Positions 18,294 to 36,053 of a DNA stretch of 64,000 nt are shown in pieces. Source of the DNA: Sphingomonas parva (ex Maeng et al. 2020) (lineage in GTDB: Bacteria > Pseudomonadota > Alphaproteobacteria > Sphingomonadales > Sphingomonadaceae); contig NZ_SPDV01000007.1 in assembly GCF_004564275.1 (NCBI RefSeq), positions 62,001-126,000 of the forward strand, read 5' to 3'. Position 1 is the first letter of the stretch. Each line of letters opens with the position of its first letter. The notes below the pieces were generated by a model. That model saw only the letters and a list, made by a program, of their open reading frames with translations, ran no database searches and was not told where the DNA came from. The position numbers were made by a program, and so were the translations under genes.

Positions 18294-18538
18294 TGGGCTA
18301 CACCTTGGATGCAGGTTACGTTGCGGACGTCGTGGAGACGCTGGAGCTGGCCGGCGACCGTGTCGAGGCTGCGGCTGGCGTCCCGGGCGCGGACGTCGAG
18401 GGCGAGGGCGCCGCGGCCATCCGCCGCCTCCGTCATACGGATGCCGCGGACCTCGAATCCACGCCGCTCGACCAGGCCGAGGACGCGCAGCACGGCGCCC
18501 TCGTGCAGATCGAAATCGATGGTGAGCTGCCCGGTCAC
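18290..18538 (-). CDS. Acetolactate synthase small subunit, short ACT-domain (IlvM-like) type
   Basis: Only 82 residues, a single ACT domain (start TGQLTIDFDLHEGAVLRV, then GFEVRGIRM). This is the size of E. coli IlvM rather than the roughly 160-residue two-domain IlvN/IlvH of most alphaproteobacteria. It would bind the large subunit encoded just before it and tune activity or feedback. The GTG start at 18538 overlaps the large-subunit stop (GTGA); a longer reading upstream would overlap the large subunit for 85 codons and has no ACT similarity. The stop overlaps the leuA start (ATGA). The position makes the function likely, although the domain is short. Confidence 0.82.
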   Translation of the reverse strand: MTGQLTIDFDLHEGAVLRVLGLVERRGFEVRGIRMTEAADGRGALALDVRARDASRSLDTVAGQLQRLHDVRNVTCIQGVAQ

Positions 18539-21240: not shown

Positions 21241-21260
21241 TGGGATTCTCCTTCGTCGCG

Positions 21261-21296
21261 CAAAAGAAAACCCCCGCTCCGGCCGGGGAGCGGGGG
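21261..21296 (-). terminator. Attenuator terminator upstream of ilvC
   Basis: On the minus strand a perfect 10-bp GC stem (CCCCCGCTCC with GGAGCGGGGG, six-base loop) runs straight into TTTTCTTTTG. It lies between the leader peptide stop and the ilvC ribosome site, so it can stop transcription before the structural genes. A competing upstream arm GGAGCGG (minus strand, at 21337-21343) is exactly complementary to the 5' terminator arm and can act as antiterminator. Confidence 0.9.
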
Positions 21297-21319
21297 TCTG
21301 GTTTCCGGTCGTATGACCT

Positions 21320-21430
21320 TTACTCAGAGCCGGCGGCCGCTCCTCTATGTGGGCAAATAAGTACAAGAAGGGTCGTGCGGAGGGTGGCCCCCGTCAGTTC
21401 GTCATCGATCAGCGCGCGATTCGGCTGCAC
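21320..21430 (-). CDS. ilv operon leader peptide
   Basis: A 36-residue reading frame whose centre is [12 protein letters not shown], a run of Leu, Leu, Val, Leu and Ile codons directly before the antiterminator arm. Ribosome stalling at these codons when charged branched-chain tRNAs are scarce would favour the antiterminator and let transcription reach ilvC. The GTG at 21430 is chosen since AAGGG lies about nine bases upstream and it is about 40 bases downstream of the predicted promoter. The frame stays open upstream, so the exact start is uncertain, but the control codons and the position are clear. Confidence 0.72.
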
Positions 21431-21470
21431 GATAGGGCCCTTGCCTAGAGAATCGTCCCGGGAGCACCAC

Positions 21471-21487
21471 TTGGGATCCCGTATGAA
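21471..21487 (-). promoter_or_regulatory. Predicted ilvC promoter core with overlapping operator TTGGGATCCC
   Basis: On the minus strand a -10-like CATAC is followed at once by GGGATCCCAA. The same arrangement, CATATGGGATCCCAA, occurs at the thr operon (32451-32467). The palindrome GGGATCCC sits where transcription should start, a natural place for a repressor. Recognition by the GntR protein encoded at 35113 is inferred only. Confidence 0.5.
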
Positions 21488-21506
21488 GCTCTTCTTGCTG
21501 CATCGC

Positions 21507-21515
21507 GGGATCCAA
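21507..21515. promoter_or_regulatory. Possible second, weaker operator (GGGATCCAA)
   Basis: A GGGATCCAA sequence lies 36 bp from the TTGGGATCCC site upstream of ilvC and resembles it in seven core bases. It could be a secondary binding site in the ilvC-ilvD divergent region. Confidence is low because the match is short. Confidence 0.3.
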
Positions 21516-21586
21516 ATCAAGCCAGAATCGTGTTGCAGGGGCTTTTTTGCTGCTTATTGTGCGCCAAACGGTGTCCCAAGCACCGA

Positions 21587-21599
21587 AGATTGTATCCCA
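21587..21599 (+). promoter_or_regulatory. Operator-like motif AGATTGTATCCCA upstream of ilvD
   Basis: The 13-base string is repeated exactly at 32537-32549 (opposite strand, thr/proA interval), and its first 12 bases recur at 35018-35029 (proB/gntR interval). Here it ends 20 bases before the ilvD start. The TATCCC part could also serve as a -10 element, so operator and promoter may overlap. Confidence 0.5.
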
Positions 21600-21619
21600 T
21601 TCAGCCCAGGAACAGACAG

Positions 21620-23284
21620 ATGCCCCGCCTGCCTTCCCGCGATTTGGTCGAAGGGCCCGCCCGTGCGCCCGCACGCGCCATGCTCCACGCCGCCGGCTAT
21701 GATGAGGAGGCGCTGGCCAAGCCGCTGATCGCGATCGTCAACAGCTGGTCGACGGTGACGCCGTGCAACGTGCACCTGCGCGATCTCGCCGACCACGCCC
21801 GCCGCGGCATCGAGGAAGCCGGCGGCACGGCGATCGACTTTAACACCATTGTCGTCACCGACGGCATCTCGATGGGCACGCCCGGCATGCGCGCCAGCCT
21901 GATGTCGCGCGAGGCGATCGCCGATTCGGCGGAGCTCGCGGTGCGCGGCCACTCGCTCGATGCGGTGCTGTTCCTGGTCGGCTGCGACAAGACCAGTCCC
22001 GCCGCGGCGATGGCGGCCGCGCGGCTCGATCTCCCCAGCGTCGTCCTCTACGGCGGATCGATCATGCCGGGCCGCCTGCGCGACAAGGCGCTGACCATCC
22101 AGGACGTGTTCGAGGCGGTCGGCGCGCACAGCAGCGGCACGATCGACGACGGCGAACTGAGGGCGGTCGAGAAAGCCGCCTGCCCCGGTGCCGGCGCCTG
22201 TGGCGGCCAGTTTACCGCCAACACGATGGCGCTGGCGCTGAGCTTCCTCGGCCTCTCGCCGATGGGCCTCAACGACGTTCCTGCCGTCCATCCCGACAAG
22301 CCCGGCGCCGCCTACGAGGCCGGATGGGCGGTCGTCGATGCGGTGCGCGCTGGCCGCAACGCGCGCAGCCTGATCACGCCGGAGAGCCTGCGCAACGCCG
22401 CCGTCGCCGGCACCGCGACCGCGGGATCGACCAACCTCGTGCTCCACCTGCTCGCGATCGCGCGCGAGGCCGGTATCGGCGCGGACCAATTCGGCATCGA
22501 CCTGTTCGACGAGGTCTCCCGAGCGACTCCGGTGATCGCAGACCTCAAGCCGGGCGGCCGCTTCATGGCGCCGGACTTGGCGGCGGCGGGAGGCACGCCG
22601 CTGCTCGGACGCCGGCTGATGGACGCGGGGCTGATCACCGACACGCCGACCGTCACCGGGCAGTCGCTCTTCTCCTATTTCGCCGATGCCCAGGAGGCGG
22701 AGGGCCAGGAGGTGATCGTGACCGCGGCGGCGCCGATCAAGGCCCGCGGCGGCTTCGGCATCCTCTACGGCAACATCGCGCCGGACGGCTGCGTCGTGAA
22801 GCTCGCCGGCCACGGCAAGCTCCGCTTCGACGGACCAGCCAAGGTGTTCGACGGCGAGGAAGCCTGCTTCGAGGCGCTCACCCACGGCGGCATCGAGGCC
22901 GGCGACATCGTCGTCATCCGCTACGAAGGTCCGGTCGGCGGGCCAGGCATGCGGGAGATGCTGGCGATCACCGCGGCGATCCAGGGGCGCGGCCTCGGCA
23001 ACGACGTCGCGCTGGTCACCGACGGCCGCTTTTCCGGAGCGACCTACGGCTTCATGGTCGGCCATGTGACTCCCGAGGCCGCCAAAGGCGGCCCGATCGC
23101 GCTGCTGCGCAGCGGCGATCGCATCGTCATCGATGTCGAGCAACGAGTGATCCAGACCGACGCCGATCTCGACGCGCGTACCGCTCCGGAGTGGCGGCCG
23201 TCACGCGAGGCGACCGGCGCCTATCGCAAATACGCCCGCCTGGTCGGCTCGGCGAGCGACGGAGCGATCACCAGCGGGATGTAG
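21620..23284 (+). CDS. ilvD: Dihydroxy-acid dehydratase
   Basis: A 554-residue Fe-S dehydratase giving the 2-oxo acids that precede valine and isoleucine. Cluster-binding cysteines are visible in [23 protein letters not shown] and [16 protein letters not shown]; the C-terminal half holds [14 protein letters not shown]. The ATG at 21620 gives the family's usual N-terminus; the open frame upstream carries the promoter and operator instead. It diverges from the ilvC cluster, which lacks its own ilvD, so this copy completes the pathway. Confidence 0.96.
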
Positions 23285-23334
23285 CCGAGAGGTAGCGGAA
23301 CCCGACGGCTCGGAGCAGCCGCGTTCGGTGCTGC

Positions 23335-23622
23335 TCAGGATCGAGACGCGCGGGCGCGGCGTCCCTCGCCGAGCCGCACGAGGATGCTCATCACCGCCAT
23401 GCCGAGCAGCAGCGCGCCGAAGAACGGCAGGACCTCGGCGGCCGCTACGCCGGCGTGGCGCTCGCCGACCTGTATCGAAGCGATGCCGCCGATCATCAGC
23501 GGCAGGGTGAACCGGCTCCAGTTGCGCCGGTCGGCCGCGCCGCGGGCAAAGACCACGTCGTAGACGGCGAGAAGGAAGATGGCGGCGTCCACCGCCAGCA
23601 TGAGGATCAGGATCGGCTTCAT
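23335..23622 (-). CDS. Small membrane protein of unknown function
   Basis: A 95-residue protein with three predicted hydrophobic segments: about residues 4-23 (ILILMLAVDAAIFLLAVYDV), 38-52 and 64-82. A basic tail, RLGEGRRARASRS, follows. I do not recognise a family. It converges with ilvD and is divergent from the M13 peptidase gene. The composition fits a real inner-membrane protein rather than a chance frame. Confidence 0.6.
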   Translation of the reverse strand: MKPILILMLAVDAAIFLLAVYDVVFARGAADRRNWSRFTLPLMIGGIASIQVGERHAGVAAAEVLPFFGALLLGMAVMSILVRLGEGRRARASRS

Positions 23623-23790
23623 CGCTCGCTCCGTTCAGGACGGGTGGACTGTCTCACACCGCAGGTTCGCGCCGCAACCGCCTTCGAAGCGGCCAAACGC
23701 GCAAGATTCGTCAAGCCGGCGCCGCTACGGCTGTTGACCGGCAGCCCGTCATCCTAGCCAAATGCGCAGAGCCAATCTGGGGAGGATGTG

Positions 23791-25857
23791 ATGCGCAAGT
23801 CGTTCCTGATCTTGTCGGCGTTCCTGCTGACCGGTGCCGCGACGCCGGCCCTGGCCGACGCGGCGGCCCAGAGCCCGGCCACCGCAATGCCGCAAGCCGC
23901 AAAGGCCCGCTACGGGACATGGGGCGCCGACCTCGGGGCCATGGACAGGAGCGTGAAGCCGGGCGACGACTTCTGGCGCTACGTGAACGGCAATTGGGAC
24001 AAGAGCACGCAGATCGCGGCCGACCGTACCAGCGCCGGCGTCGGCGTGCTGCTCGTCGACCAGGCCGAGGCGCAGGTGAAGGCGATTGTCGAGGACCTCG
24101 CCCGCGACCCCGCGAAGTCCGGCCAGATCGGCCGGCAGCTCGGCGACTTCTACGCGAGCTGGATGGACGAGGCGGCGATCGAGGCGCGCGGCATTGCGCC
24201 GCTGAAGCCTTACCTGGCGCGGATCGATGCGGTGCGCAGCCGCAGCGACCTGATCAAGCTGTTCGCACGGCCCGGGTACATGAGCCCGATCGGCATCGGC
24301 ATCCTCCCCGATCCGGCCGATCCCACCCGCTACATCGCGGCCGCCGGTCAGGGCGGCCTGGGCCTGCCGAACCGCGACTATTATTTGCTCGAGGGTGCGA
24401 AATACGACGCGATCCGCAAGGGCTATCGCGACTATATCGTGAAGATCCACCAGCTCGCCGGCCTGCCCGACGGAGAGACGAAGGCCGACAGGATCATCGC
24501 GCTTGAGACCGCGCTCGCCAGGGTCCACTGGGACCCGGCGCGTCAACGCGACATCAAGCAGATCTACAACCCGATGAACCGGGCCCAGCTGACCGAGCTC
24601 GCCCCGCAGCTCGAATGGCCGGCCTTCCTCGAGGCGTCAGGCCTCGCTGGCGTCGACACTGTCATCGCCGCCGAGAAGAGCGCCATCACCGAAACGGGCA
24701 AGCTGCTCGACACCATCCCGCTGCAGACCTGGAAGGACTATTCGACCTTCCACTTCATCAGCGCCAACGCGCCGTATCTGCCCAAAGCGTTCGACCAGGC
24801 GAATTTCGACTTCTATTCGAAGACGTTGCGCGGCGTGCCGCAGCAGCGAGAGCGCTGGAAGCGCGGTGTCCAGCAGCTCAACACCTTTCTCGGAGAGGGT
24901 GTCGGCCGGGTCTATGTCGAGCGGCATTATCCGGCCGAGAGCAACCGGCAGATGACCGAGCTGATCGCCAACCTGCGTGCCGGGCTGGAGACGCGGCTCG
25001 CCGCCTCGACCTGGATGGACGAATCGACGAAGGCGCAGGCACGCGCCAAGCTCGCGGCGTTCGATCCCCGGATCGGCCATCCGGCGAAATGGATCGATTA
25101 CAGCAGCCTGAAGGTCGATCGGAACGACCTGCTCGGCAATGCCATCCGGGGCAACGAGTTCGCTTGGAACCTGCAGCTCTCGCGGCTCGGCAAGCCGGTC
25201 GATCGTGCGCTCTGGGACATGAACCCGCAGGAGGTGAACGCTTATTACAACCCCCTGATGAATCAGATCACCGTCCCCGCGGCCATCCTGCAGGCGCCCT
25301 ATTTCGATCCGGCGGCGGATCCGGCGGTGAACTACGGCGGGATCGGCGCGATCATCGGCCATGAGATCGGCCACGGCTTCGACGATCAGGGCCGCCAGTT
25401 CGACGCCAGCGGCAAGATCCGTGACTGGTGGACGGCGACGTCGGGAGAGCAGTTCACCGCCCGCGCGGCGAAGCTCGGCGCCCAATATGACCAGTACGAG
25501 GCGATCCCCGGCACGAGGATCAACGGCAAGCTCACCATGGGCGAGAATATCGGCGATCTCGGCGGGCTCGAGATGGCCTACGCCGCGTACCGCCGGCACG
25601 TCGCCCAGCATGGCGAGCCGCCGGTGATCGACGGCATGACCGGCGATCAGCGCTTCTTCATCGCCTACGCACAGGCGTGGCGCTCGAAGATCCGGGAGGA
25701 TGCGCTGCGCGAGCGGCTGCTCACCGATCCGCACAGTCCGCCTTATTATCGGGTCAACGGCATCGTCCGGAACGTCGACGCCTGGTACAAGGCGTTCGAC
25801 GTCAAGCCGGGCGACAAGATGTACCTGCCGCCCGAGCAGAGGGTCAGCATCTGGTGA
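23791..25857 (+). CDS. M13-family zinc metallopeptidase (PepO/neprilysin type), secreted
   Basis: A 688-residue periplasmic peptidase. A signal peptide (LILSAFLLTGAATPALA) is followed by the helical M13 N-terminal domain and the catalytic domain with HEIGH at residues 524-528, the third zinc ligand and active-site pair in GENIGDLGG (Glu585, Asp589), and the substrate-binding NAYY motif. The ATG at 23791 has GGAGG five bases upstream; the GTG three bases earlier is too close to it. It ends before a strong terminator. The family is certain; the natural substrate is not known. Confidence 0.94.
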   Translation: MRKSFLILSAFLLTGAATPALADAAAQSPATAMPQAAKARYGTWGADLGAMDRSVKPGDDFWRYVNGNWDKSTQIAADRTSAGVGVLLVDQAEAQVKAIVEDLARDPAKSGQIGRQLGDFYASWMDEAAIEARGIAPLKPYLARIDAVRSRSDLIKLFARPGYMSPIGIGILPDPADPTRYIAAAGQGGLGLPNRDYYLLEGAKYDAIRKGYRDYIVKIHQLAGLPDGETKADRIIALETALARVHWDPARQRDIKQIYNPMNRAQLTELAPQLEWPAFLEASGLAGVDTVIAAEKSAITETGKLLDTIPLQTWKDYSTFHFISANAPYLPKAFDQANFDFYSKTLRGVPQQRERWKRGVQQLNTFLGEGVGRVYVERHYPAESNRQMTELIANLRAGLETRLAASTWMDESTKAQARAKLAAFDPRIGHPAKWIDYSSLKVDRNDLLGNAIRGNEFAWNLQLSRLGKPVDRALWDMNPQEVNAYYNPLMNQITVPAAILQAPYFDPAADPAVNYGGIGAIIGHEIGHGFDDQGRQFDASGKIRDWWTATSGEQFTARAAKLGAQYDQYEAIPGTRINGKLTMGENIGDLGGLEMAYAAYRRHVAQHGEPPVIDGMTGDQRFFIAYAQAWRSKIREDALRERLLTDPHSPPYYRVNGIVRNVDAWYKAFDVKPGDKMYLPPEQRVSIW

Positions 25858-25864
25858 GCGGGAG

Positions 25865-25892
25865 GGGGAGCCGCGGCTCCCCTTTCCATTTT
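25865..25892 (+). terminator. Terminator after the M13 peptidase gene
   Basis: The perfect palindrome GGGGAGCCGCGGCTCCCC is followed by TTTCCATTTT, a strong rho-independent terminator starting eight bases after the stop codon. Confidence 0.85.
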
Positions 25893-26004
25893 ACGAAGCG
25901 ACGAGCGAGAGCCGCGCTGGATGGCCGGCGGAGCTGCTTGTGCGCTGCAGCAAAATACCGTATAAATACGTACGACTCAACGATATCTCGCGACGGGGAC
26001 AGGC

Positions 26005-26184
26005 ATGCGACTCTACGCGTTCCGTTACGGGCAGCGCGACAATGCGCGCACCGAAGAGCTCTACTTCCGCGACGACCGCTCGGCGCTCGATTATGCGATG
26101 CCGGCGGCTGCCGGCGGCGGCGTCGAGATCTGGCAGGACGAGACGTTGCTCGTCTGCATGGAGAAATGGGGCGACGCAGCCTGA
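26005..26184 (+). CDS. Small conserved-looking protein of unknown function
   Basis: A 59-residue protein starting MRLYAFRYGQRDNARTEELY and ending ETLLVCMEKWGDAA, with alternating hydrophobic and charged residues suggesting a small folded domain. The ATG follows GGGGACAGGC, and an AT-rich stretch (accgtataaatacgt, near 25955-25970) could hold the promoter. I do not recognise a family. It ends close to a hairpin shared with the convergent UrcA gene. Confidence 0.55.
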   Translation: MRLYAFRYGQRDNARTEELYFRDDRSALDYAMPAAAGGGVEIWQDETLLVCMEKWGDAA

Positions 26185-26238
26185 GCGGTCTTTGCGCCCG
26201 CCATTCCCCGGGATTCACCAATTATCGTCTCGCACTCC

Positions 26239-26260
26239 GTCCCCTCCCGCAGGAGGGGAC
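26239..26260. terminator. Hairpin between convergent genes, likely bidirectional terminator
   Basis: GTCCCCTCC and GGAGGGGAC form a perfect nine-base stem with a four-base loop between the small protein gene and the urcA-like gene. There is no clear T-run, so termination is likely but not certain. Confidence 0.5.
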
Positions 26261-26272
26261 CGAAGCCGCCAG

Positions 26273-26644
26273 TCAGCGCGCCGGCGCGGAGATCGTCAGG
26301 CTGCTCAGCGTGGCGCTTGCCAGCGTCGGATTGGTCCGGGACTGATCCAGCGCCAGCTCGATCTGCGGCCGAGCGCCTTTCCAGGCGTAGGTGTGGCAGG
26401 ACGCTTCCTGGACATAATCGCCGGCAGCGCTGCAGACGAAGCGGACCGCACCGGATACCCGCCGCATCAGCGCCTTTTCTCCGGCAGGCGTCGCAAGGTC
26501 GAGGTCGTTGAAGGCGACCACGCGGGTCGCGCGGCCCTCGTGATCCGCCGCGGGGCGCTGCCCGGTCACCACCGGCTCGGCAAAGGCCGGGGAGATCGCG
26601 AGCGTGAGAAGGGCGGCGGCGCAAAGGGGAGATGTGCTCTTCAT
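26273..26644 (-). CDS. UrcA-family protein, exported
   Basis: A 123-residue protein with a signal peptide (PLCAAALLTLAISPAFA) and the UrcA pattern RVVAFNDLDLATPAGEKALMRRV, with two cysteines (VCSAAG and ASCHTY) probably forming a disulfide. UrcA proteins are common in Sphingomonadales and Caulobacterales; their function is not established. The ATG at 26644 has AGGAGA seven bases upstream; longer readings lack a signal peptide. Confidence 0.85.
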   Translation of the reverse strand: MKSTSPLCAAALLTLAISPAFAEPVVTGQRPAADHEGRATRVVAFNDLDLATPAGEKALMRRVSGAVRFVCSAAGDYVQEASCHTYAWKGARPQIELALDQSRTNPTLASATLSSLTISAPAR

Positions 26645-26910
26645 CGCTTTTCTCCTGGGCCGGGAACGGGCCCGAGTTCCTGTCTCCCCGATCCTGGAAG
26701 CGCCCGCACGCGCGTTGCGACATGGGTCAGGCCAGCGACGATCAAGCGCGAAAATCTCGACGAAGGTCCTGATGGCGTCGACGAACGGCGGAAGGCTTGC
26801 GTCGCTTCGCATGCATGCAGGTGCCCGACTCGCATGGTCGGCGTTTCGACTGCCCGTTGCGGTTTCGCGACATTTGCCGATCGGCATGCGACGCAATAGG
26901 CACTCTCCGG

Positions 26911-27651
26911 ATGTTCGCAGCCCCGCCCGATCCGCACCGACACCGCCGCCGGCTGGCTTCGATGCTGCTCGTGGGCGTGCTGCACGCGGGTCTCCTGTTC
27001 CTGCTGTGGGCGCTGGCTCCGTCGCCGATGCGGCTGCTCGAGCCGAAACGCGGTGCGACCCTGATCACGCTGGTGCCCGAGGCGGAGTCCGAGGCGCCCG
27101 CGCCCACGCCGCAAGCGGACCGCAGGCAAGCCCCGGCGTCGGCTCAGGCCGCCTCGGCGCGCGCCGAGGCAGCGCCCCCGCCACCGAGGGTGCAGCTGCC
27201 GGCTGCCGCGACCCAAGGCTGGTCTTTCGAGCTGATGCCAGGAATGGAGAAGTTCGACCTGGCATCGCTACCGCGGGCCGCAGCACCTCCGGGAGGCGGC
27301 GCGGGGGCCGGGGAAAGTGCCGCTGCGGACATCGGCGGCAAGGTGCCCGGACGGGATCGGCTGTTCCCGGCCCAGTGGCAGCGCAAGCCGAGCCGCGCCG
27401 AGCTCGCCGCCTATCTTCCGCCCGGCCTCCGCCAGACCGGCTTCGGCATCATTGCCTGCCGAACGGTCGAGAACTTCCGGGTCGAGGATTGCGAGGAGCT
27501 CGACCAGTCGCCCGGCTCCGGTCTCGCCGGCGCCGTCCGCCAGGCGGCGTGGCAGTTCCGCGTCCTGCCGCCGCGCGTCGGAGGCCGCTCGCTGGTCGGC
27601 GCCTGGGTGAGGATCCGCATCGACTATAGCGAAGGCCAGCCCGAAGCCTGA
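26911..27651 (+). CDS. TonB-like membrane-anchored periplasmic protein
   Basis: A 246-residue protein with one N-terminal membrane helix (LASMLLVGVLHAGLLFLLWAL), a linker rich in Pro and Ala (EAPAPTPQADRRQAP) and a C-terminal domain ending LVGAWVRIRIDYSEGQPEA. The layout matches energy-transducer TonB proteins, but the C-terminal domain is divergent and no exbB/exbD neighbours exist, so coupling to a receptor is unproven. The ATG at 26911 is chosen because the anchor helix then lies near the N-terminus; the frame is open for 38 more codons upstream. Confidence 0.6.
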   Translation: MFAAPPDPHRHRRRLASMLLVGVLHAGLLFLLWALAPSPMRLLEPKRGATLITLVPEAESEAPAPTPQADRRQAPASAQAASARAEAAPPPPRVQLPAAATQGWSFELMPGMEKFDLASLPRAAAPPGGGAGAGESAAADIGGKVPGRDRLFPAQWQRKPSRAELAAYLPPGLRQTGFGIIACRTVENFRVEDCEELDQSPGSGLAGAVRQAAWQFRVLPPRVGGRSLVGAWVRIRIDYSEGQPEA

Positions 27652-27724
27652 CGTCCGGCTCGCCGCCGGCACGGCGCGTCGACGGTGCCGGAACCGTGGC
27701 CGCGCGCAAGGCGCTGATGGCGGC

Positions 27725-28213
27725 ATGGAAATCGCCGGTTTCGACTGGACTGCAATCGAAAGCCTCGGCGCGGCTCTGGCCTTCGCGGAAAGCGAGGCCG
27801 CCGTGGCCGGCGCCTTCTTCCTGGGAACCACGGCGCTCGTCGCCTGCTGCGTACCGGGCGGCATCGCCGCGATGGCGATCTCCGCCGCAGCCTTGCTCGA
27901 GACCTGGCTGGCGATCCCGGCGGTCGCTTTGGGCGCCCTCGCCGCCAGCCAGATCCTGTTCCTGGGGATACGCCGCATCGACGGCGGTCGAACCCGGGCG
28001 AGGCTCGGCGCGCGGCTGCAGACGTTCGAGCAGCGCTTCGCCCGCTACGGCCCCTGGTACATCGTCGGACTTCGCATGTTCGGCGCACCGCATTTCCTGG
28101 TCACTGCGGCGAGTGCCCTCCTGCCGCTGCGCGCGGGCGTGTTCGCCGCCGCCACGATCGCCGGCTTCCTGCCGGGGATCACGCTCGCCGCGGCGGCGGG
28201 ATCGGCGCTGTAG
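27725..28213 (+). CDS. VTT-domain (DedA/TVP38-like) membrane protein
   Basis: A 162-residue inner-membrane protein with four to five hydrophobic segments. The segment RYGPWYIVGLRMFGAPHFLV followed by a small-residue-rich helix and FAAATIAGFLPGITL matches the VTT/DedA re-entrant core, a family linked to lipid flipping and membrane homeostasis. It is shorter than typical DedA proteins (about 200 residues). It converges with thrC, ten bases apart. Confidence 0.65.
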   Translation: MEIAGFDWTAIESLGAALAFAESEAAVAGAFFLGTTALVACCVPGGIAAMAISAAALLETWLAIPAVALGALAASQILFLGIRRIDGGRTRARLGARLQTFEQRFARYGPWYIVGLRMFGAPHFLVTAASALLPLRAGVFAAATIAGFLPGITLAAAAGSAL

Positions 28214-28223
28214 CCGATGCCGG

Positions 28224-29528
28224 TCAGGCGGCGGCGCGGCTCTCCCCGTCCAGAGCCTCGGCCAGAGCCGCCAGCTCCGCCGGGACGGTGGACTTGCGCG
28301 CGACGCGGCCGAGGATTGCCGCCAGGGCGGGCGGCGCCTCGACCGGCGCGCCGATCAGCGGCTCTATGGCCTCGGCGAACTTGAACGGATGGGCGGTGGC
28401 GGCGGCGATCCACGGACGCGCCGCCTGTTCCTCGGACGACAGCCGCGACCAGGCCTCGGCCGCCGTCGCCGAATGCGGGCACCAGACGTAGCCGGTCCTG
28501 TCGAACTCGGTCTTCACCCGCGACCGGATCGCCGAATCGGTGACGAGATCGACGCGGATGTCCGAAGCCTCGGGCGACAACGCGCTCAGCCGCTCGAAAT
28601 TGCTCGGCGTGCCGACGTCCATGGCGTTGGCGATGGTGGCGATCGAGGCGCGGGGCACATAGGCTCCGCTCGCCCACCAGTCCGCCAGGGTTCGGTTGGC
28701 GTTGGTGACGAGCAGCACCGGGCCGATCGGCAGGCCGAGCGCACGGGCATAGAACGTGGCGAAGCCGTGGCCGAGGTTGCCGGTCGGAACGACGAAGCCA
28801 GGCTTCTCCCCCGTCTCCGCGAACAGGCGGAGAGCGGCATGGCCGACATAGGCCATCTGCGGCAACAGCCGGCCGATGTTGATCGAGTTGGCCGAGGTCA
28901 GGCGGTGGCGATCGCTCAGACCGCGGTCGGCAAAGGCGGCCTTCACCAGCCGCTGGCAATCGTCGAAATCGCCCTCCACCTCGAGAGCGCGCACCGGCGC
29001 ACCCCAGCAGGTGAGCTGCAGCTCCTGGAAGGGCGACACGCGGCCTTTGGGAAAGAGGATCAGGGCGCGCACCGCCGCACGACCTTCCGCAGCGCAGCCG
29101 ACCGCACCACCGGTGTCCCCGGAGGTCGCGGCGAGAACCGTCAGCGGATCCGCCGGATCGCCGATCCGATCGAAGCAGGCCATCAGGAAGCGCGCGCCGA
29201 AATCCTTGAAGGCGCCGGTCGGGCCGTGGAAGAGCTCCAGGGCGCGCAGGCTCGGCCGCGCCGCGTCGGGAGTCACCAGCGGCACCGGAAAGTCGAACGC
29301 CTCCGCACAGATCCGCGGCAGCTCGGGCTCGAGCGGGTCTCCCTCGAAGAACGGGGCGAGCATCGCGGCGGCGAAGCCGGCGAGATCCATGCCGGGATCG
29401 AGCCGGGTCACGTCGAGCGCCGGCAGCGTCTCGGGCATGTAGAGGCCACCGTCCGGCGCGGCGCCGTTGCGGATCGCCTGGCTGAGCGAGACGGCGGGGG
29501 AGCTCCGGCGTGTGCTGACGAACCTCAC
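28224..29528 (-). CDS. thrC: Threonine synthase
   Basis: A 434-residue PLP enzyme converting phosphohomoserine to threonine. The lysine binding PLP lies in GPTGAFKDFGARF, and TSGDTGGAVGCAAEG and VPTGNLGHGFATFY are further PLP-pocket motifs. It starts with GTG at 29528, overlapping the thrB stop (GTGA). It is the last gene of the attenuated fusion-kinase, thrB, thrC operon. Confidence 0.95.
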   Translation of the reverse strand: MRFVSTRRSSPAVSLSQAIRNGAAPDGGLYMPETLPALDVTRLDPGMDLAGFAAAMLAPFFEGDPLEPELPRICAEAFDFPVPLVTPDAARPSLRALELFHGPTGAFKDFGARFLMACFDRIGDPADPLTVLAATSGDTGGAVGCAAEGRAAVRALILFPKGRVSPFQELQLTCWGAPVRALEVEGDFDDCQRLVKAAFADRGLSDRHRLTSANSINIGRLLPQMAYVGHAALRLFAETGEKPGFVVPTGNLGHGFATFYARALGLPIGPVLLVTNANRTLADWWASGAYVPRASIATIANAMDVGTPSNFERLSALSPEASDIRVDLVTDSAIRSRVKTEFDRTGYVWCPHSATAAEAWSRLSSEEQAARPWIAAATAHPFKFAEAIEPLIGAPVEAPPALAAILGRVARKSTVPAELAALAEALDGESRAAA

Positions 29529-30466
29529 GCCACTTCCTCGCTGACCCGTTCGACGCGAACGCCCTGGGAGGCGACCGGCGCACGATAGGCCCGGGCGGCG
29601 ATGCCCGCCTCTACGAAGCTCCAGGACATCGCATCCTCGACCGCATCGGCGTCCTTCTCCAAGGCCCAGGCGAAGACCGACGGACCCGAGCCGGAGAAGG
29701 AGCAGCCCAAGGCGCCCGCCGCCAGCGCCGCTCCCTTGAGCTCGGGCAGAACGGGGAGGAGATGCTGCCGCTGCGGCTCGACCAGCACGTCCTCGAGTCC
29801 GGCGCGGATCAGGCCGAGATCACCGGCCGCGCAGCCGGCGACGAAGGCGGCGACCCGCCGGCTGTGCTCGACGACCAGCGGCATCGGCACCTCCTTGCGA
29901 AGAATGCCGCGCGCCATCCTGGTCTCCACCTTCACGGCGGGGTGCAGGACGATCGACACCACGCCCTTAGGCACCGGCAGCCTCTGGACCAGAGGCGGAT
30001 CCTCGCTGGCGGCGAGCACCAGTCCGCCGAGCAGGCTCGCCATGACATTGTCCCAATGCGGCGGATCGGACGCGATCCGCTCCCCCTCGAGCGCGAAGGG
30101 AAGCAGCTGCGCGACCGAAAACGGCTCGCCGAGCAGGGCGTTGGCGGCGGCGGCGCCGGCGACGGCGGAGGCCGCCGAGCCGCCCATTCCGGCGGCGAGC
30201 GGCACGCCCTTGTCGATGTCCAGCCGCATGCCGTGCGGCGCCCCGGCGGCATCGAGCACCGCCTGGGCGGCGGCAAGAGCGGTGTTGCTGGAGGGGCTCG
30301 GGGGAAGGCTCGCGACCAAGCCCGAGACGGAACCGAGGCGGACGCCCGGCGCATCCTCGCGCACCGCCGTCACCCGGTCGCGCGCGGCGTCGAAGGCCTG
30401 GCCGAGGATGTCGAAGCCGACCCCGACATTGCCGATGCTGGCGGGTGCGCTCGCAGAAGCCTGCAT
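29525..30466 (-). CDS. thrB: Homoserine kinase (GHMP family)
   Basis: A 313-residue kinase that phosphorylates homoserine. The GHMP nucleotide-binding loop is PLAAGMGGSAASAVAG, with the N-terminal substrate loop ASIGNVGVGFDILG and the C-terminal GCSFSGSGPSVFAW. The ATG at 30466, 11 bases after the preceding stop, gives the normal family start; the open frame continues upstream inside the preceding gene but lacks GHMP similarity. Confidence 0.94.
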   Translation of the reverse strand: MQASASAPASIGNVGVGFDILGQAFDAARDRVTAVREDAPGVRLGSVSGLVASLPPSPSSNTALAAAQAVLDAAGAPHGMRLDIDKGVPLAAGMGGSAASAVAGAAAANALLGEPFSVAQLLPFALEGERIASDPPHWDNVMASLLGGLVLAASEDPPLVQRLPVPKGVVSIVLHPAVKVETRMARGILRKEVPMPLVVEHSRRVAAFVAGCAAGDLGLIRAGLEDVLVEPQRQHLLPVLPELKGAALAAGALGCSFSGSGPSVFAWALEKDADAVEDAMSWSFVEAGIAARAYRAPVASQGVRVERVSEEVA

Positions 30467-30477
30467 CACCGATCCCT

Positions 30478-32211
30478 TCAGGCCAGGAGCTTCAGCGACA
30501 CCGGGGCGGGGAGATCCGCCGGCACCCGGCCGAGCAGCGCCCGCTGCGCGTCCATCACGTCTGCGAACACCGCCGTTGCCGTCGGCCATCTGCCGGCTCC
30601 CTTGCCGAATACCTGATGCACCATGCCGCTGCCATCGGTAACGAGGAAGCGGTTTTCCTCGTTGCGGGCGCCGGCGAGCGGATGCGCCACCGGCAGCGCG
30701 ACGACGCGCACCTCGGCCTCGATGCTGCCGTCGGGAAGGCGGCGGCATCGGCCGACCTGCTTCAGCACCTCGCCGCGGGCGAGCGCCGCCTGCGCCGCCT
30801 CCGGCGTCACGTCGCGCAGGCTCTCCTTGGCGATGCGGTCGGGCAACAGCGCCACGCCGAATGCTTCGCGGATCAGGATCGAGAGCTTGTCGGCGGCATC
30901 GTGGCTGTCGACGTCCGCGGCGGGATCGGCCTCGGCATAGCCGAGCTCCTGCGCCTGAGCGACGGCATCGTCGAAGCTCCAGCCTTCACCGAGGCGGCTG
31001 AGCAGATAATTGCACGTGCCGTTCATCACGCCTTCCAGCGCGACGACGTCGCCGTCAAGCCGCTTCAACGTCTCGAGGATCGGGGCGCCGCCGCCGACCG
31101 CGGCAGAATAGCGGATGGCGCCGCCGCCCGCCTCGGCACAGGCGTGGAGCGGATCGTAATATTTGGCGACCGCCGCCTTGTTGGCCGTGACCACCTGCGC
31201 GCCGTGGTGGAGTGCCGAGAGCATCAGCTCGGCCGGACGGTCGGCGCCGCCGAGCAGCTCGATGACCAGATCGGGATTCCCTGCCAGCGCCTCCGAGAGC
31301 TGGGCGGTATAGCGGCCGGGATCGCCATATTTGGCGGGGCGGCGGACCAGCACCGGATTGACCTCGAAGAGGTCCGGCCGCGACTGGAGATAGGCGAGAA
31401 CCCCGGCGCCGACGGCGCCGCAGCCGAGCAGCGCGACGCGGAGCCGCTCCGGCTTCGGCGGCCGCGCCTTTCTTGCGGGCACATGGGCGATCGTCGTTGC
31501 CTCGGCCGAGCCCAGCGCCGCCACCTCGATCAACACGTCCTCCTTCTCCGCCGCCCGGATCGCCTTTGGCTGGATCAGCCCGGCGCTGGCGGCCTCGGCC
31601 TCGGCATAGCGCATCTGCGAGAACCGCTCGGCGGCGGGATTCCTGGCAGGATCCTCGGCATAGACGCCGTCAACGTCCTTGATCAGCCTCACCCGGTGGG
31701 CATCGAGCCGCGCCGCGAAGAACACCGCGCTGAGGTCGGTGCCGCCACGGCCGAGGGTCACCACGCCATGCTCGGCGTGGCGGGCCGTGAAGCCGGGCAC
31801 GACGACCACGTCGTGCGCGGCGAGCTTCGCCCGGACCGCCTCGGCGTCGAGGCCGACGAGGTTGGCGTCGAGCGCTTCCCCCTCGGCGACCAGCCCCATC
31901 TCCTCCGGATCCATGGTACAGGCCCGCACGCCCACCTTGGCGAGCGCGAGCGCCATCAGCGCGGCGGAATGGAGCTCGCCGCAACGGGCGACCCGGGCGA
32001 CGAGGGTATCGGGACCGCCGCTGCCGACGCGCTCCGCCTGGTCGAGCAGCGCGTCGGTCTCGCCGGCGAGCGCGGAGACGACCGCCACGACTTTCTCTCC
32101 GTCGCGCACGTGCCGGTAAATCTCGAGGGCGACCGCCGGATAGTCGGCCTCGGTGCAGAGCACCGAACTTCCGAATTTCAGGACGCAGAGACGCTGGTTG
32201 TCGTCGGTCAT
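30478..32211 (-). CDS. Bifunctional aspartate kinase-homoserine dehydrogenase without ACT domains
   Basis: A 577-residue fusion: aspartate kinase about residues 8-245 (LKFGSSVLCT, GRGGTDLSAVFF), a linker PARKARPPKP, then homoserine dehydrogenase 258-577 (VALLGCGAVGAGVL, VVTANKAAVA, EGVMNGTCNYLLSRLGEG, DSHDAADKLSIL). E. coli ThrA is about 820 residues because two ACT regulatory domains sit between the two enzymes; these are missing here, so feedback control must be different. The ATG at 32211 has GAAGG upstream; the ATG at 32247 would place its ribosome site inside the terminator. Named thrA in enterobacteria. Confidence 0.93.
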   Translation of the reverse strand: MTDDNQRLCVLKFGSSVLCTEADYPAVALEIYRHVRDGEKVVAVVSALAGETDALLDQAERVGSGGPDTLVARVARCGELHSAALMALALAKVGVRACTMDPEEMGLVAEGEALDANLVGLDAEAVRAKLAAHDVVVVPGFTARHAEHGVVTLGRGGTDLSAVFFAARLDAHRVRLIKDVDGVYAEDPARNPAAERFSQMRYAEAEAASAGLIQPKAIRAAEKEDVLIEVAALGSAEATTIAHVPARKARPPKPERLRVALLGCGAVGAGVLAYLQSRPDLFEVNPVLVRRPAKYGDPGRYTAQLSEALAGNPDLVIELLGGADRPAELMLSALHHGAQVVTANKAAVAKYYDPLHACAEAGGGAIRYSAAVGGGAPILETLKRLDGDVVALEGVMNGTCNYLLSRLGEGWSFDDAVAQAQELGYAEADPAADVDSHDAADKLSILIREAFGVALLPDRIAKESLRDVTPEAAQAALARGEVLKQVGRCRRLPDGSIEAEVRVVALPVAHPLAGARNEENRFLVTDGSGMVHQVFGKGAGRWPTATAVFADVMDAQRALLGRVPADLPAPVSLKLLA

Positions 32212-32253
32212 CGAAATCGCCTTCAGATCTGATGTGGAACGGGACATTGGGAT

Positions 32254-32288
32254 AAAAAAAACCCGCTCACCTTGGGGGGGAGCGGGTT
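32254..32288 (-). terminator. Attenuator terminator of the thr operon
   Basis: On the minus strand AACCCGCTC pairs with GAGCGGGTT (11-base loop) followed by a run of eight T. It lies between the leader peptide and the fusion enzyme gene. A competing GAGCGG arm (32315-32320) overlaps the end of the leader peptide and can pair with the 5' terminator arm. Confidence 0.9.
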
Positions 32289-32311
32289 GAAAGCTCGGAT
32301 CTCTCGGATCG

Positions 32312-32365
32312 TCAGCCGCTCGCCCCCCGGAACCGGGTGGTGATGGTGATAATCGTCGTCATCAT
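32312..32365 (-). CDS. thr operon leader peptide
   Basis: Seventeen residues, MMTTIITITTRFRGASG, with five Thr and three Ile codons in eight positions, the classic control run for threonine operons regulated by threonyl- and isoleucyl-tRNA. Stalling here would allow the downstream antiterminator to form. The ribosome site is weak. It sits about 90 bases downstream of the predicted promoter. Confidence 0.85.
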   Translation of the reverse strand: MMTTIITITTRFRGASG

Positions 32366-32450
32366 CGAGCACGCAGCACCGCCCGCCGTGCCTGGGGCAC
32401 GCGTGAGAAACGGGTTGGCGCTGCGAAGGGACAATGCACGATACCTCGGT

Positions 32451-32490
32451 TTGGGATCCCATATGTGCCGGGCAGAAGCCGAGTCGTCAA
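32451..32490 (-). promoter_or_regulatory. Predicted thr operon promoter overlapping operator TTGGGATCCC
   Basis: On the minus strand TTGACG (32485-32490) and CACATA (32462-32467) are separated by 17 bases, a good sigma-70 promoter. Directly after the -10 lies GGGATCCCAA (32451-32460), the same palindrome as at the ilvC promoter. Binding of a repressor there would block the start site. Confidence 0.6.
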
Positions 32491-32534
32491 CCGCAAAAAG
32501 GGCGCCTTCGTAGAATTGCGATCGAAACGTATGA

Positions 32535-32549
32535 TTTGGGATACAATCT
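32535..32549 (-). promoter_or_regulatory. Operator-like motif AGATTGTATCCCAAA
   Basis: This site shares 13 bases with the site before ilvD and lies about 86 bp upstream of the thr promoter operator, so it could be a distal site for a dimer or looping repressor. It is 60 bp from the 3' end of proA. Confidence 0.45.
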
Positions 32550-32609
32550 ACCTCGCGTAGCCTCTCCCCCTTTCGAAGAAGGCGCGAGCGACGGAACGCG
32601 GGCCTCTTG

Positions 32610-33836
32610 CTACGGCCGGGTCTGGCCGGTGCCGCGAACGACATATTTGAAGCTGGTGAGCTGCTCCGGTCCGACCGGTCCGCGGGCGTGGAGCTTGCCG
32701 GTGGCGATCCCGATTTCCGCACCGAAGCCGAACTCGCCGCCGTCGGCGAACTGAGTCGAGGCGTTCCAGATCACGATGGCGCTGTCGACGCGGTCGAGGA
32801 AAGCCTCGGCCGCAACCGGATCCTCCGCCACGATCGCTTCGGTGTGGCCGGTGCCGTAGCGGGCGATATGGGCGACGGCCCCGGCGACTCCGTCGACGAG
32901 CCGGACGGCGAGGATCGGCGCGAGATATTCGGTCGCCCAGTCCGCCTCGGCGGCGGCGGCCATAGGTACGATCGCGCGGGCGCCCGCGTCGCCGCGCAGC
33001 TCGCATCCTTGGAGCGCCTCGGCGAGGCGCGGCAGCAGCACGGGCGCGGCGGCGCGGTCGACGAGCAGGGTCTCGGTCGCGCCGCACACCGAGACGCGAC
33101 GCAGCTTGGCGTTCGCGACGATCTCGGCGGCCATTACGGGGTCCGCCGATTCGTGGACATAGGTGTGGCAGACACCCTCGAGATGGCCGAGCGTCGGCAC
33201 CCTGGCGTCGCGGCTCACCCGCTCGACCAGGGCCTTGCCGCCGCGCGGGATGATCAGATCGATCGCGCCGGACAGGCCCTCGAGCATCATGCCTACGGCC
33301 GCACGATCGGCGGTGGCGACGATCTGGACCGCGCCGGCGGGAATGCCGGTCTCGGCGAGACCCGCCGCCAGCGCGCGATGGAGGGCGAGCGCGCTGCGCA
33401 GCGCCTCGCTCCCCGAGCGCAGGATGATGGCGTTGCCCGAGCGCAGGCAGATCGCCGCCGCATCGGCGGTGACGTTGGGCCGGCTTTCGTAGATCATGCC
33501 GATCACGCCGATCGGCGTGCGCACGCGGGCGATGTCGAGGCCGTTCGGCCGCTGCCAGCGCGCGATCTCGGCGCCGACCGGATCCGGCAGATCGGCCACT
33601 GCCTCGACCGCGGCGGCGATCCCCTCCAGCCGCGCGTCGTTCAGAAGGAGGCGGTCGACCATGGCCGTGGCCGCGCCGACGTCCGCGGCATTGGCGGCGA
33701 GGATGGCGCCGGCCTCGGCCCGGATGTGGCGGGCCATCGCCCGAATCGCCTCGGAGCGCGCCTCGGCCGACAGGCTGCGCAGCACGTCCGCCGCCAGCCG
33801 TGCCTGACGGCCCATTTGGTTCATCATGTCCTGCAT
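32610..33836 (-). CDS. proA: Gamma-glutamyl phosphate reductase
   Basis: A 408-residue enzyme reducing glutamyl 5-phosphate to the semialdehyde in proline synthesis. The catalytic cysteine lies in [38 protein letters not shown] and [11 protein letters not shown] are NADPH-binding region motifs. Its ATG shares one base with the proB stop (TGATG). ProA and ProB act as a complex because the intermediate is unstable. Confidence 0.96.
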
Positions 33837-34978
33837 CAGACCAGCACCAGATCGTCCCTGTGAATCAGCTCGTCCGGGCCACTATAGCCCAGCCGCTCCG
33901 CGATGGCCGCGCTGACGCAGCCGGCGATCGCCTGCGCCTCGGCCGAGGTATAGGCGCTGAGGCCGCGTGCGACCTCGCGCCCCGCCGGATCGAGCACGCG
34001 CAGGCAAACTCCGCGTTCGAACACGCCGCCCACCGCGCGAACGCCGGCCGGCAGCAGGCTCTTGCCGCCCGCCAGGGCCCGAACCGCGCCCTCGTCGATC
34101 GTGACCGAGCCCGCCGGCTCCAGCGTTCCCGCGATCCACTGCTTGTACGCCCCGGCGGGCGAACCGGAGGCCGCGATCACGGTGGCGCGGGCGCCGTGCT
34201 GAAGCGCGCGGAGCGGATTGGCCGCATGGCCGTGCGCGATGATCGTGGCGCAGCCGAAGCCGCGCGCGATCCGCGCCGCGGCGATCTTGGTGCGCATGCC
34301 CCCGGTCCCGACCCCGGCGCTCCCCGCCCCGCCGGCGAAACCCTCGATCGTCTCGTCGATCGCATCGAGGAAGGGGAGATGCTCGGCACCGGGCTCCCGA
34401 GACGGATCGGCGGTGTAGAGGCCGTCGACGTCGGACAGGAGGATGAGGACGTCGCTGCGGATCATCTGGGCGACCCGGGCCGAGAGCCGATCGTTGTCGC
34501 CGTAGCGCAGCTCCTCGGTCGCGACGCTGTCGTTCTCGTTGACCACCGGCAGGGCACCCTCGCGCAGCAGCACTTCCATGGTCGCCCTGGCATTGAGCCA
34601 GCGGCGGCGCGATTCGGTGTCCTCGACGGTGAGCAGCAGCTGCGCCGTCGGGATCCCGGCACGGGCCATCGCCGCCTCCCAGGCCGCCATCAGCCGGGGC
34701 TGCCCGGCCGCCGCGGCCGCCTGCTTGAGATCGAGCCGGGCCGACCGCTTGAGGCCGAGCTTGCCGCGTCCGAGCGCGACCGCGCCCGACGAGACGACGA
34801 CGGTGTGCTTGCCCGCAGCGCGAAGGGCGGCGAGGTCCTCGGCGACGCTGTCCAGCCAGGCACGGCGAACATCCTCGCCCTCGATCAGCAGCGAGGAGCC
34901 GATCTTCACGGTGACGCGCCGCGCCGCGGCGATACGCCCCGCCGCGTCGTTCATCCCGCGCTGTTCGACTCCGCTCAT
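33836..34978 (-). CDS. proB: Glutamate 5-kinase
   Basis: A 380-residue kinase starting proline synthesis. The amino-acid kinase fold begins [10 protein letters not shown], with [19 protein letters not shown] and [13 protein letters not shown] in the catalytic region, and a C-terminal PUA domain from about residue 285. The ATG at 34978 is used because TAGG lies at suitable distance; an ATG eight codons later is also possible. It is divergent from the GntR regulator, with an operator-like motif between them. Confidence 0.94.
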
Positions 34979-35017
34979 GCGCGCGAGCCTAGGAAGCGCT
35001 GTTGCGCCGCACAACAA

Positions 35018-35029
35018 AGATTGTATCCC
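35018..35029 (+). promoter_or_regulatory. Operator-like motif AGATTGTATCCC between proB and the GntR gene
   Basis: The motif also appears upstream of ilvD and between thr and proA. Here it lies 40 bp upstream of proB and 84 bp upstream of the GntR gene. TTGCGC (35002-35007) and TATCCC (35024-35029), 16 bases apart, could be the gntR promoter, so the site would allow autoregulation. Confidence 0.5.
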
Positions 35030-35112
35030 GAGTTGTGGACGGGGACCCTGCCTCCCAGCTATGAGGCTGCGCGAGAGAGCGGGACAACCCCCCGTTCGGG
35101 ACCGGAGAGAGC

Positions 35113-35799
35113 GTGGAAAGCCCCGTAGCGCAGCGTATTCGTGAACTGATCGTCGAGGGCACGCTTGCCCCCGGCACCCGTGTCGCCGAAGCGGCGATCG
35201 CCGAGCGGCTCGGAGTCTCCCGCACGCCGGTGCGCAACGCGCTCCCCGCTCTCGCGATGGAAGGCCTGCTCGAGCCCGCCGGCAAGCGCGGCTGGGCTGT
35301 CCGCGGCTTCAGCGTCGAGGACAGCTTCCGAGGCACCGAGATTCGCTGCCTGCTCGAAGGCTATGCGGCGCGCGAGCTTGCCGCCCGTCCCGACCGCGGT
35401 CCGGTCGTCGCCGAGCTGCGCGACTGCCTTGCCGAAGGCGACGCGATCTTCGCCAAGGGCCATGTCGTCAAGGAAGACGAGGAGGCCTATGGCCGGATGA
35501 ACCGCCGCTTCCACGACACGATCAACAGCGGCGCGCGCGATCCCCTGCTCTCCGATCTCATCCACCGCGTTTACGCGGTGCCGTTCGTCGCACCGGCCGT
35601 GGTCGCGTTCAACCGCGTGCCGCTCGAGGAGATCTTCCCGATCCTCGTCTCCGGCCATCACCAGCACCACGCCATCGTCGACGCCATCGAAGCCGGCCAG
35701 CCCGACGTCGCCGAGACGCTGATGCGCGGCCACAGCTCGCCGGCGCGCCGCAGCCTGGGACTCGACAAGCTCCCCGAGATCGCCTTGCCCGACGTCTGA
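35113..35799 (+). CDS. GntR-family (FCD-domain) transcriptional regulator
   Basis: A 228-residue regulator: an N-terminal winged helix (about 1-65; RIRELIVEGTLAPGTRVAE, ERLGVSRTPVRNAL) and an alpha-helical FCD ligand domain (about 80-215) with His and Asp residues such as NRRFHDTI and SGHHQHHAIVDAI that could bind a metal. The start is GTG with GGAGAG upstream. It is encoded between proline and methionine genes, and the motif it may recognise recurs at four amino-acid loci. The ligand is unknown. Confidence 0.92.
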   Translation: MESPVAQRIRELIVEGTLAPGTRVAEAAIAERLGVSRTPVRNALPALAMEGLLEPAGKRGWAVRGFSVEDSFRGTEIRCLLEGYAARELAARPDRGPVVAELRDCLAEGDAIFAKGHVVKEDEEAYGRMNRRFHDTINSGARDPLLSDLIHRVYAVPFVAPAVVAFNRVPLEEIFPILVSGHHQHHAIVDAIEAGQPDVAETLMRGHSSPARRSLGLDKLPEIALPDV

Positions 35800-35995: not shown

Positions 35996-36053
35996 GGCCG
36001 AGACGGCAACGAACCGGGTCTCTCAGCCACATCTCCCGAGCGAAGGTAGGAAG

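What the first reader, a model, noticed from the sequence alone, without database searches (positions are those of the whole stretch)
21471..35029. A repeated operator-like motif links the ilv, thr and pro loci to a GntR-family regulator
AGATTGTATCCC occurs at 21587 (ilvD), 32538-32549 (minus strand, thr/proA) and 35018 (proB/gntR). TTGGGATCCC occurs at 21471 and 32451, both placed right after a CATA(C/T) -10 element. Seen directly: five matching sites in intergenic regions of amino-acid genes. Known: GntR/FCD proteins are usually autoregulated and bind short near-palindromes. Inferred: the protein at 35113 binds all these sites and coordinates branched-chain, threonine, proline and perhaps nitrogen synthesis. 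I do not know of a described regulator of this kind in this lineage.
Basis: partly seen in the sequence, partly recalled or inferred. Interest (0 to 1): 0.78.

Follow-up and report, generated by a model that had tools for sequence, protein, structure and literature searches.

The report
VanR-type repressor of amino-acid synthesis
In some soil sphingomonad bacteria, a repressor from a family known for controlling the breakdown of lignin-derived aromatics appears to have been rewired into a master switch for making amino acids.

Summary
AGATTGTATCCC occurs three times in the 4.49-Mb genome, all at the places named, with no one-mismatch copy. The protein at 35113 is an FCD-GntR regulator whose nearest solved structure is Atu1419 (VanR). 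VanR2, a Pseudomonas GntR-type repressor, binds GGGATCCC in EMSA (PMC12314914). Sites lie within 600 bp upstream of ilvC, hom, asd or DAHP synthase in 19 of 22 gene-genome pairs with the regulator and 0 of 54 without; G019, 3 of 3 with sites but no gntR found in an 82%-complete assembly, is set apart. Other sites precede dapA, gltB, leuB, tyrA-aroG and gntR itself, so the regulon looks like general amino-acid synthesis. Paired sites are 85-118 bp apart at hom and one covers the presumed -10: most likely a repressor bridging two operators. Thr and Ile/Val/Leu leader-peptide attenuators form a separate layer, also present without gntR. Binding, direction of control and looping are inferred; the effector is unknown. 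New variant of a known kind.

The parts
35113..35799 (+). gntR: FCD-GntR regulator, VanR-like (228 aa), proposed repressor
   Evidence: Pfam GntR 1.2e-16 and FCD 4.4e-17; nearest fold Atu1419/VanR, Foldseek E 1.4e-12
35018..35032 (-). operator between proB and gntR (CTCGGGATACAATCT), about 90 bp before gntR
   Evidence: counterpart in G001 and G007
32535..32549 (+). upstream (distal) operator of hom: TTTGGGATACAATCT
   Evidence: counterpart in 5 of 5 gntR+ genomes with this hom, the window's included
32450..32463 (.). promoter operator of hom, TTTGGGATCCCATA, overlapping the presumed -10
   Evidence: centre-to-centre distance to the distal site 85 bp
32312..32365 (-). thr leader peptide MMTTIITITTRFRGASG*
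   Evidence: read by eye; same type of peptide in gntR+ and gntR- congeners
32254..32287 (-). hairpin plus U-run before hom (attenuator terminator)
   Evidence: read by eye and in the alignment; not found by the terminator scan; the MFE fold pairs these bases differently
30478..32247 (-). aspartate kinase-homoserine dehydrogenase fusion (hom/thrA-like)
21470..21481 (+). ilvC promoter-proximal operator CTTGGGATCCCG
21506..21517 (-). middle ilvC operator ATTTGGATCCCG
   Evidence: counterpart in G001 and G007, none in G018 and G022
21587..21601 (-). distal ilvC operator AATGGGATACAATCT; ends about 18 bp before the ilvD ATG
21320..21430 (-). ilv leader peptide, GTG start assumed, ...[17 protein letters not shown]
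   Evidence: coordinates read by eye; similar peptide in 11 of 12 genomes examined (judged by eye)
21268..21299 (-). intrinsic terminator between ilv leader and ilvC
20230..21330 (-). ilvC (ketol-acid reductoisomerase); true start a little inside
18535..20226 (-). ilvB (acetolactate synthase large subunit)
16713..18293 (-). leuA (2-isopropylmalate synthase)
21620..23284 (+). ilvD (dihydroxy-acid dehydratase)
32610..33836 (-). proA
   Evidence: Aldedh family; name from position next to proB
33836..35017 (-). proB (amino-acid kinase plus PUA); start probably inside this ORF

Best explanation
The gene at 35113 encodes a VanR-like FCD-GntR repressor that binds the pseudo-palindrome TTTGGGATMCMA. 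In part of this sphingomonad genus (a close relative is Allosphingosinicella deserti) it controls general amino-acid synthesis: ilvCB-leuA, ilvD, hom/thr, asd, dapA, DAHP synthase and others, and its own gene. At hom one operator covers the presumed -10 region and a second lies 85-118 bp upstream. The protein most likely bridges the two, as the tetrameric relative Atu1419 does, and blocks transcription start until an effector releases it. Leader-peptide attenuators then tune thr and ilv transcripts separately. Shown here by computation: the sites, their conservation and their co-occurrence with the gene. Inferred: binding by this protein, repression, looping. Unknown: the effector.
For: Three exact 12-mers in 4.49 Mb, all at these loci. 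PWM sites upstream of ilvC, hom, asd, DAHPS: 19 of 22 gntR+ pairs, 0 of 54 gntR- pairs, G019 set apart with 3 of 3; 11 of 14 in gntR+ genomes not used to build the PWM; 300 column-permuted PWMs gave at most 7 of 22. Fisher p with G019 counted as gntR- (it has no asd entry): 0.0005 ilvC, 0.005 hom, 0.001 asd, 0.002 DAHPS. Motif within about 100 bp upstream of gntR in G000, G001, G007, G022 and of homologues in G187 and G059; TATTGGATCCAATA upstream of 37-39% homologues in G180, G119, G026. VanR2 of Pseudomonas sp. NGC7 binds GGGATCCC in EMSA and represses, with the key site directly downstream of the -10 (PMC12314914, passages). DNA-contact residues R31, E34, R45, T46, R49 of Atu1419 are all conserved, and the essential G3/C8 of its 10-bp site (PMC7797058, passages) fits TGGGATMCMA. 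Operator spacing at hom changes in steps of about one helical turn: 85, 85, 86, 96, 107 and, in G019, 118 bp.
Against: G019 has sites at 3 of 3 genes tested but no gntR at E<=1e-5; its assembly is 82% complete in 640 contigs, so this is unresolved. No site upstream of asd in G018 and G022, nor of the 50%-identical ilvC of G013. No PWM site in the 350 bp before gntR in G013, G018, G035 (G018 has two GGGATCC cores there; G013 gntR lies downstream of a lysA-like gene). Phasing over 17 spacings is absent at 10.0 bp (p=0.92), weak at 10.5 bp (p=0.03) and strong only at 11.0 bp (p=4e-5), a period chosen afterwards; I left out the 33-34-bp gaps and two gaps to weak sites (64 and 192 bp). Five of 11 genome-wide strong matches in G000 lie inside unrelated genes. 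Of 19 regions picked from the other genomes 10 show no amino-acid-synthesis gene at the site. The wing glycine G66 of Atu1419 is K58 here. No binding or expression data.
Confidence: 0.77

Rival explanations
1. A narrow regulator: the protein controls only itself, pro, thr and ilv in this cluster, and the sites elsewhere (asd, dapA, DAHPS, gltB, leuB) are chance or decay.
For: The three exact 12-mers all lie within 14 kb; five of 11 strong matches in G000 are inside unrelated genes; asd lacks sites in G018 and G022; 10 of 19 regions picked in relatives show no amino-acid-synthesis gene.
Against: asd and DAHPS, neither used to build the PWM, carry upstream sites in 4 of 6 and 5 of 5 gntR+ genomes against 0 of 19 and 1 of 10 (G019) gntR-.
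Confidence: 0.12
2. Another protein, a second GntR or other factor, recognises these sites, and the neighbouring gntR is incidental.
For: G019 has the sites but no gntR found; other GntR-like matches at 28-44% identity, some over part of the length, exist in 7 of 9 congeners searched.
Against: Sites vanish where gntR is not found (0 of 54, G019 set apart); the motif sits before gntR and two distant homologues; VanR2 binds GGGATCCC (PMC12314914).
Confidence: 0.08
3. The same protein and sites, but acting as activator, or as both, for example activating from the distal site.
For: Many of the promoters have a second site 63-142 bp from the first; G022 ilvC has only the distal-type site.
Against: The proximal site overlaps the presumed -10 at hom; VanR2 and Atu1419 are repressors (PMC12314914, PMC7797058).
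Confidence: 0.15
4. Chance repetition of a short word.
For: TTGGGATCCC alone is at chance level in the window.
Against: Genome-wide rarity, conservation and co-occurrence.
Confidence: 0.01

Closest known systems
Atu1419 (VanR group), Agrobacterium fabrum, PDB 6z74/6za3
   Same: Same domains and best fold match; conserved DNA contacts and Zn ligands N137, H141, H192, H214; short palindromes, paired in one promoter region; operator over the -10 (PMC7797058, passages)
   Different: Controls hydroxycinnamate catabolism through ATGTATACAT; effector-pocket residues N221, K175, R183 are S, R, P here
VanR2, Pseudomonas sp. NGC7
   Same: GntR-type repressor, operator core GGGATCCC, autoregulated, key site just after the -10 (PMC12314914, passages)
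   Different: Controls syringate catabolism, induced by syringate and 3-O-methylgallate; its sequence was not compared here
Lrp and CodY (recalled; CodY also in the listing, PMC5794164)
   Same: Many amino-acid operons under one regulator, with attenuation as a second layer
   Different: Unrelated proteins (recalled); effectors known
Proteobacterial thr and ilv attenuators (recalled)
   Same: Thr/Ile-rich and Leu/Val/Ile-rich leader peptide, then terminator
   Different: Nothing essential; here combined with GntR operators
HypR (GntR), proline/hydroxyproline utilisation (PMC5343134, passages)
   Same: GntR family, proline-related
   Different: Controls utilisation, not synthesis

Membership tests
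VanR group of FCD-GntR regulators | GntR winged HTH plus FCD domain | tested here: met
   both above Pfam cut-offs
VanR group of FCD-GntR regulators | six, not seven, helices in the effector domain | tested here: inconclusive
   the predicted model (pLDDT 85.1) lists seven helical stretches from residue 68 on, six only if the two short last ones (197-206, 209-214) are counted as one; criterion from PMC7797058
VanR group of FCD-GntR regulators | nearest solved structure in the VanR group | tested here: met
   Atu1419 chains rank 1-12; best by sequence too, E 9.3e-23
VanR group of FCD-GntR regulators | short palindromic operator with G3/C8 | tested here: inconclusive
   pattern conserved beside gntR; binding not measured
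Vanillate or syringate repressor (functional VanR) | adjacent aromatic O-demethylase genes | tested here: not met
   direct neighbours are proB and, after a riboswitch, metX; O-demethylase-like genes were seen beside the 43% and 45% homologues
Methylene-tetrahydrofolate sensor (Atu1419-like) | Zn site and effector-pocket residues | tested here: inconclusive
   Zn ligands, R86 and Y133 kept; N221, K175, R183 changed
Tetrameric, DNA-looping repressor | tetramer bridging two sites | not testable with these tools
   only indirect: operator spacings

The most novel reading that the evidence does not exclude
A catabolic VanR-type repressor was rewired into a master repressor of amino-acid synthesis that reads one-carbon status (5,10-methylene-tetrahydrofolate or a near relative) and loops DNA between helically phased operators, so that folate and serine supply gates the whole amino-acid programme. 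Hints: conserved Zn pocket, folate-dependent O-demethylase-like genes beside the 43% and 45% homologues, a weak site 66 bp before serC-serA, and a site between gntR and thiC in G022.
Probability: 0.17. Interest if true: 0.85.

Novelty: new variant of a known kind. Interest (0 to 1): 0.62.

Why it matters
Global control of amino-acid synthesis is poorly described in sphingomonads as far as I know (recalled). A catabolic repressor family taking over synthesis, in some congeners and not others, is a natural case of regulon rewiring: the structural genes and attenuators are shared, the operators and the regulator come and go together (G019 unresolved). It gives a testable binding site, a small set of promoters and a candidate effector class.

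Tried and rejected
Rejected: chance repetition; treating AGATTGTATCCC and TTGGGATCCC as two motifs; counting every genome-wide match as regulatory: in G000 five of 11 places lie inside genes (ubiG-like, a 287-aa gene kept in G001 and G007 with the same word, a thiolase-like, a cox-like and an unnamed gene, names read by eye, gene calls by my own script). Led nowhere: the site pairs about 330 bp apart in G001/G007 (L123, L126) lie by an apparently non-coding stretch; in window 15000-40000 Rfam gave only a SAM-I/IV riboswitch above its cut-off. Ten literature searches over open-licence PMC papers: in the titles and abstract starts listed (often only part of the papers found) I saw no description of such a regulator in sphingomonads. 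The Caulobacter VanR operator ATTGGATCCAAT is recalled; one search counted no occurrence of that string in the 15 papers it listed of 59.

Rows dropped: second ilvC, hom and asd matches (L168-L171, L185-L189, L216-L218; of these L185 and L186 are the only hom matches of G012 and G017), ilvC matches without a locus, the 50% asd of G019 (L215), and partial or second DAHPS matches (L234-L239) were left out of the upstream counts. Some gntR- genomes are incomplete (G020 68%, G016 86%). In one search two gntR- asd matches overlap the start codon (G002, G025) and were not counted as sites; counting them gives Fisher p 0.015. The Fisher counts were typed in. From I looked at all 11 places in G000, but in the other genomes only at 19 chosen regions plus the gntR neighbourhoods: 9 of 19 lie at an amino-acid-synthesis gene (L125, L127, L129, L130, L131, L132, L133, L138, L141), 10 do not (L123, L124, L126, L128, L134, L135, L136, L137, L139, L140; L135 holds a P-II gene). 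After (51 rows, 16 control) I looked at 9 further places, of which 2 lie at amino-acid genes. In one search the gntR of G118 was skipped, G050 had only 5 bp upstream, and G036, G041, G052, G197 were not tested.
Full report
What is in the sequence. GGGATACAATCT with up to one mismatch occurs three times in the 4,487,171-base genome, all in this window, and the reversed control pattern none.

Who carries it. The GntR protein has relatives at 76-91% identity in 5 other genomes of the 26 in the genus, so 6 of 26 with the window's own; of 199 family genomes searched, 13 match at E<=1e-20, the window's own included, and only G035 (72%) is close outside the genus. The named relative with 91% identity, Sphingomonas deserti (now Allosphingosinicella deserti), has sites in the same three promoter regions: ilvC, hom and proB/gntR.

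Conservation test. I scanned 600 bp upstream of four genes across the genus. With gntR, 19 of 22 gene-genome pairs have a site scoring 11 or more; without a gntR found, 0 of 54; G019, where no gntR was found either, has 3 of 3 and is set apart. In the gntR+ genomes that did not contribute to the PWM the count is 11 of 14. Over 300 column-permuted PWMs the gntR+ count averaged 1.0 and never passed 7; the gntR- count averaged 2.2, at most 11. Per gene, with G019 counted as gntR- where it has an entry: ilvC 5 of 6 against 1 of 20, hom 5 of 5 against 1 of 8, asd 4 of 6 against 0 of 19, DAHPS 5 of 5 against 1 of 10. Among genomes with the close ilvC type (72% identity or more) it is 5 of 5 against 0 of 6. 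G019 is an 82%-complete assembly in 640 contigs with no gntR at E<=1e-5: a real exception or an assembly gap.

Regulon. The pattern TTTGGGATMCMA with up to one mismatch gives 13 rows in G000 against 1 control row, and 134 against 52 over the nine genomes searched, palindromes counted on both strands. In G000 these are 11 distinct places: hom twice, asd, dapA, chorismate mutase-DAHP synthase, one TonB-dependent receptor, and five inside genes; the pattern is too strict for the ilvC and proB/gntR sites. In other gntR+ genomes sites lie before gltB, leuB and ilvD (G013), asd and tyrA-aroG (G007), hom, ilvC/ilvD and DAHPS/gltB (G022), ilvC/ilvD (G018, G035) and DAHPS (G001) (some neighbours named by eye). 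Of 19 regions I chose in these genomes, 9 lie at such genes and 10 do not. Weaker sites in G000 lie about 300 bp before an aroG-type DAHP synthase, divergent from a phenylalanine 4-monooxygenase gene, and 66 bp before serC-serA. The motif also precedes gntR in G000, G001, G007 and G022, and homologues at 45% and 43% identity in G187 and G059, which lie beside folate-binding O-demethylase-like genes (in G187 below the curated cut-offs of both LigM and DesA). Homologues at 37-39% identity in G180, G119 and G026 have TATTGGATCCAATA instead. No such site was found before gntR in G013, G018 and G035.

Protein. GntR plus FCD domains. The predicted model (pLDDT 85.1) matches Atu1419/VanR best. Residues that touch DNA in Atu1419 (R31, E34, R45, T46, R49) and its Zn ligands (N137, H141, H192, H214) are conserved; the pocket residues N221, K175 and R183 and the wing residue G66 are not (roles from PMC7797058 passages). 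The essential G3 and C8 of the Atu1419 site fit the operator. VanR2 of Pseudomonas sp. NGC7 binds GGGATCCC in EMSA and represses from a site directly downstream of the -10 (PMC12314914 passages).

Mechanism. At hom, six aligned promoters (G000, G001, G007, G018, G022, G019) share a TTGAC box and the proximal palindrome about one spacer downstream, where the -10 belongs. The distal operator is 85, 85, 86, 96, 107 and 118 bp away, centre to centre (118 is G019). Over 17 collapsed spacings the phase is uniform at 10.0 bp (p=0.92), non-uniform at 10.5 bp (p=0.03) and strongly so at 11.0 bp (p=4e-5), the last picked afterwards; short 33-34-bp gaps and two gaps to weak sites were left out. Atu1419 is a tetramer seen to loop DNA (PMC7797058, passages). 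I therefore favour repression by bridging, with moderate confidence.

Attenuators. The hom leader encodes MMTTIITITTRFRGASG*; a Thr/Ile-rich peptide of this type is seen in 11 of 13 genomes examined, seven picked by script and four, the window's included, by eye; G005 has a Met-rich one and none was picked in G021. The ilvC leader encodes a Leu/Val/Ile-rich peptide ending GAAAGSE*; 11 of 12 genomes have a similar one by eye, G019 being unclear, and a terminator-like pattern was found in 9 of 12. Both sets include gntR- genomes, so this layer is independent of the GntR operators.

Limits. No binding, expression or effector data. Counts cover the one genus plus a few genomes outside it. Gene names marked as read by eye were not searched. 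On checking, confidence in the explanation was lowered from 0.78 to 0.77 because the count of regions without an amino-acid gene had been left out.

Noticed in passing
window 35915-36023 (+): SAM-I/IV riboswitch (58.8 bits, above cut-off) just before metX at 36054.
   Followed up: no
window 32254-32365 (-): Thr/Ile-rich leader peptide and hairpin before hom; similar leaders in 11 of 13 genomes examined, with or without gntR.
   Followed up: partly
window 21268-21430 (-): Leu/Val/Ile-rich leader peptide and terminator before ilvC; similar peptide in 11 of 12 genomes examined.
   Followed up: partly
L123 3587-3930 and L126 3160-3500: Pair of operator matches about 330 bp apart in both G001 and G007 beside an apparently non-coding stretch of about 1.2 kb.
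   Followed up: partly
L116 3492; L281 1501: Operator matches about 290-400 bp before two TonB-dependent-receptor-like genes in G000 (the second named by eye); peptide uptake might belong to the regulon.
   Followed up: no
L114 3351-3580: asd is divergent from an M28-family peptidase gene, with two operator matches between them.
   Followed up: no
L071 8037-8050: A near-perfect operator palindrome inside proB of G013.
   Followed up: no
G000 C4 171-1684 and C101 5201-6714: TTTCGGATATAAAT recurs every 500 bp, four times in each contig, a tandem repeat.
   Followed up: no
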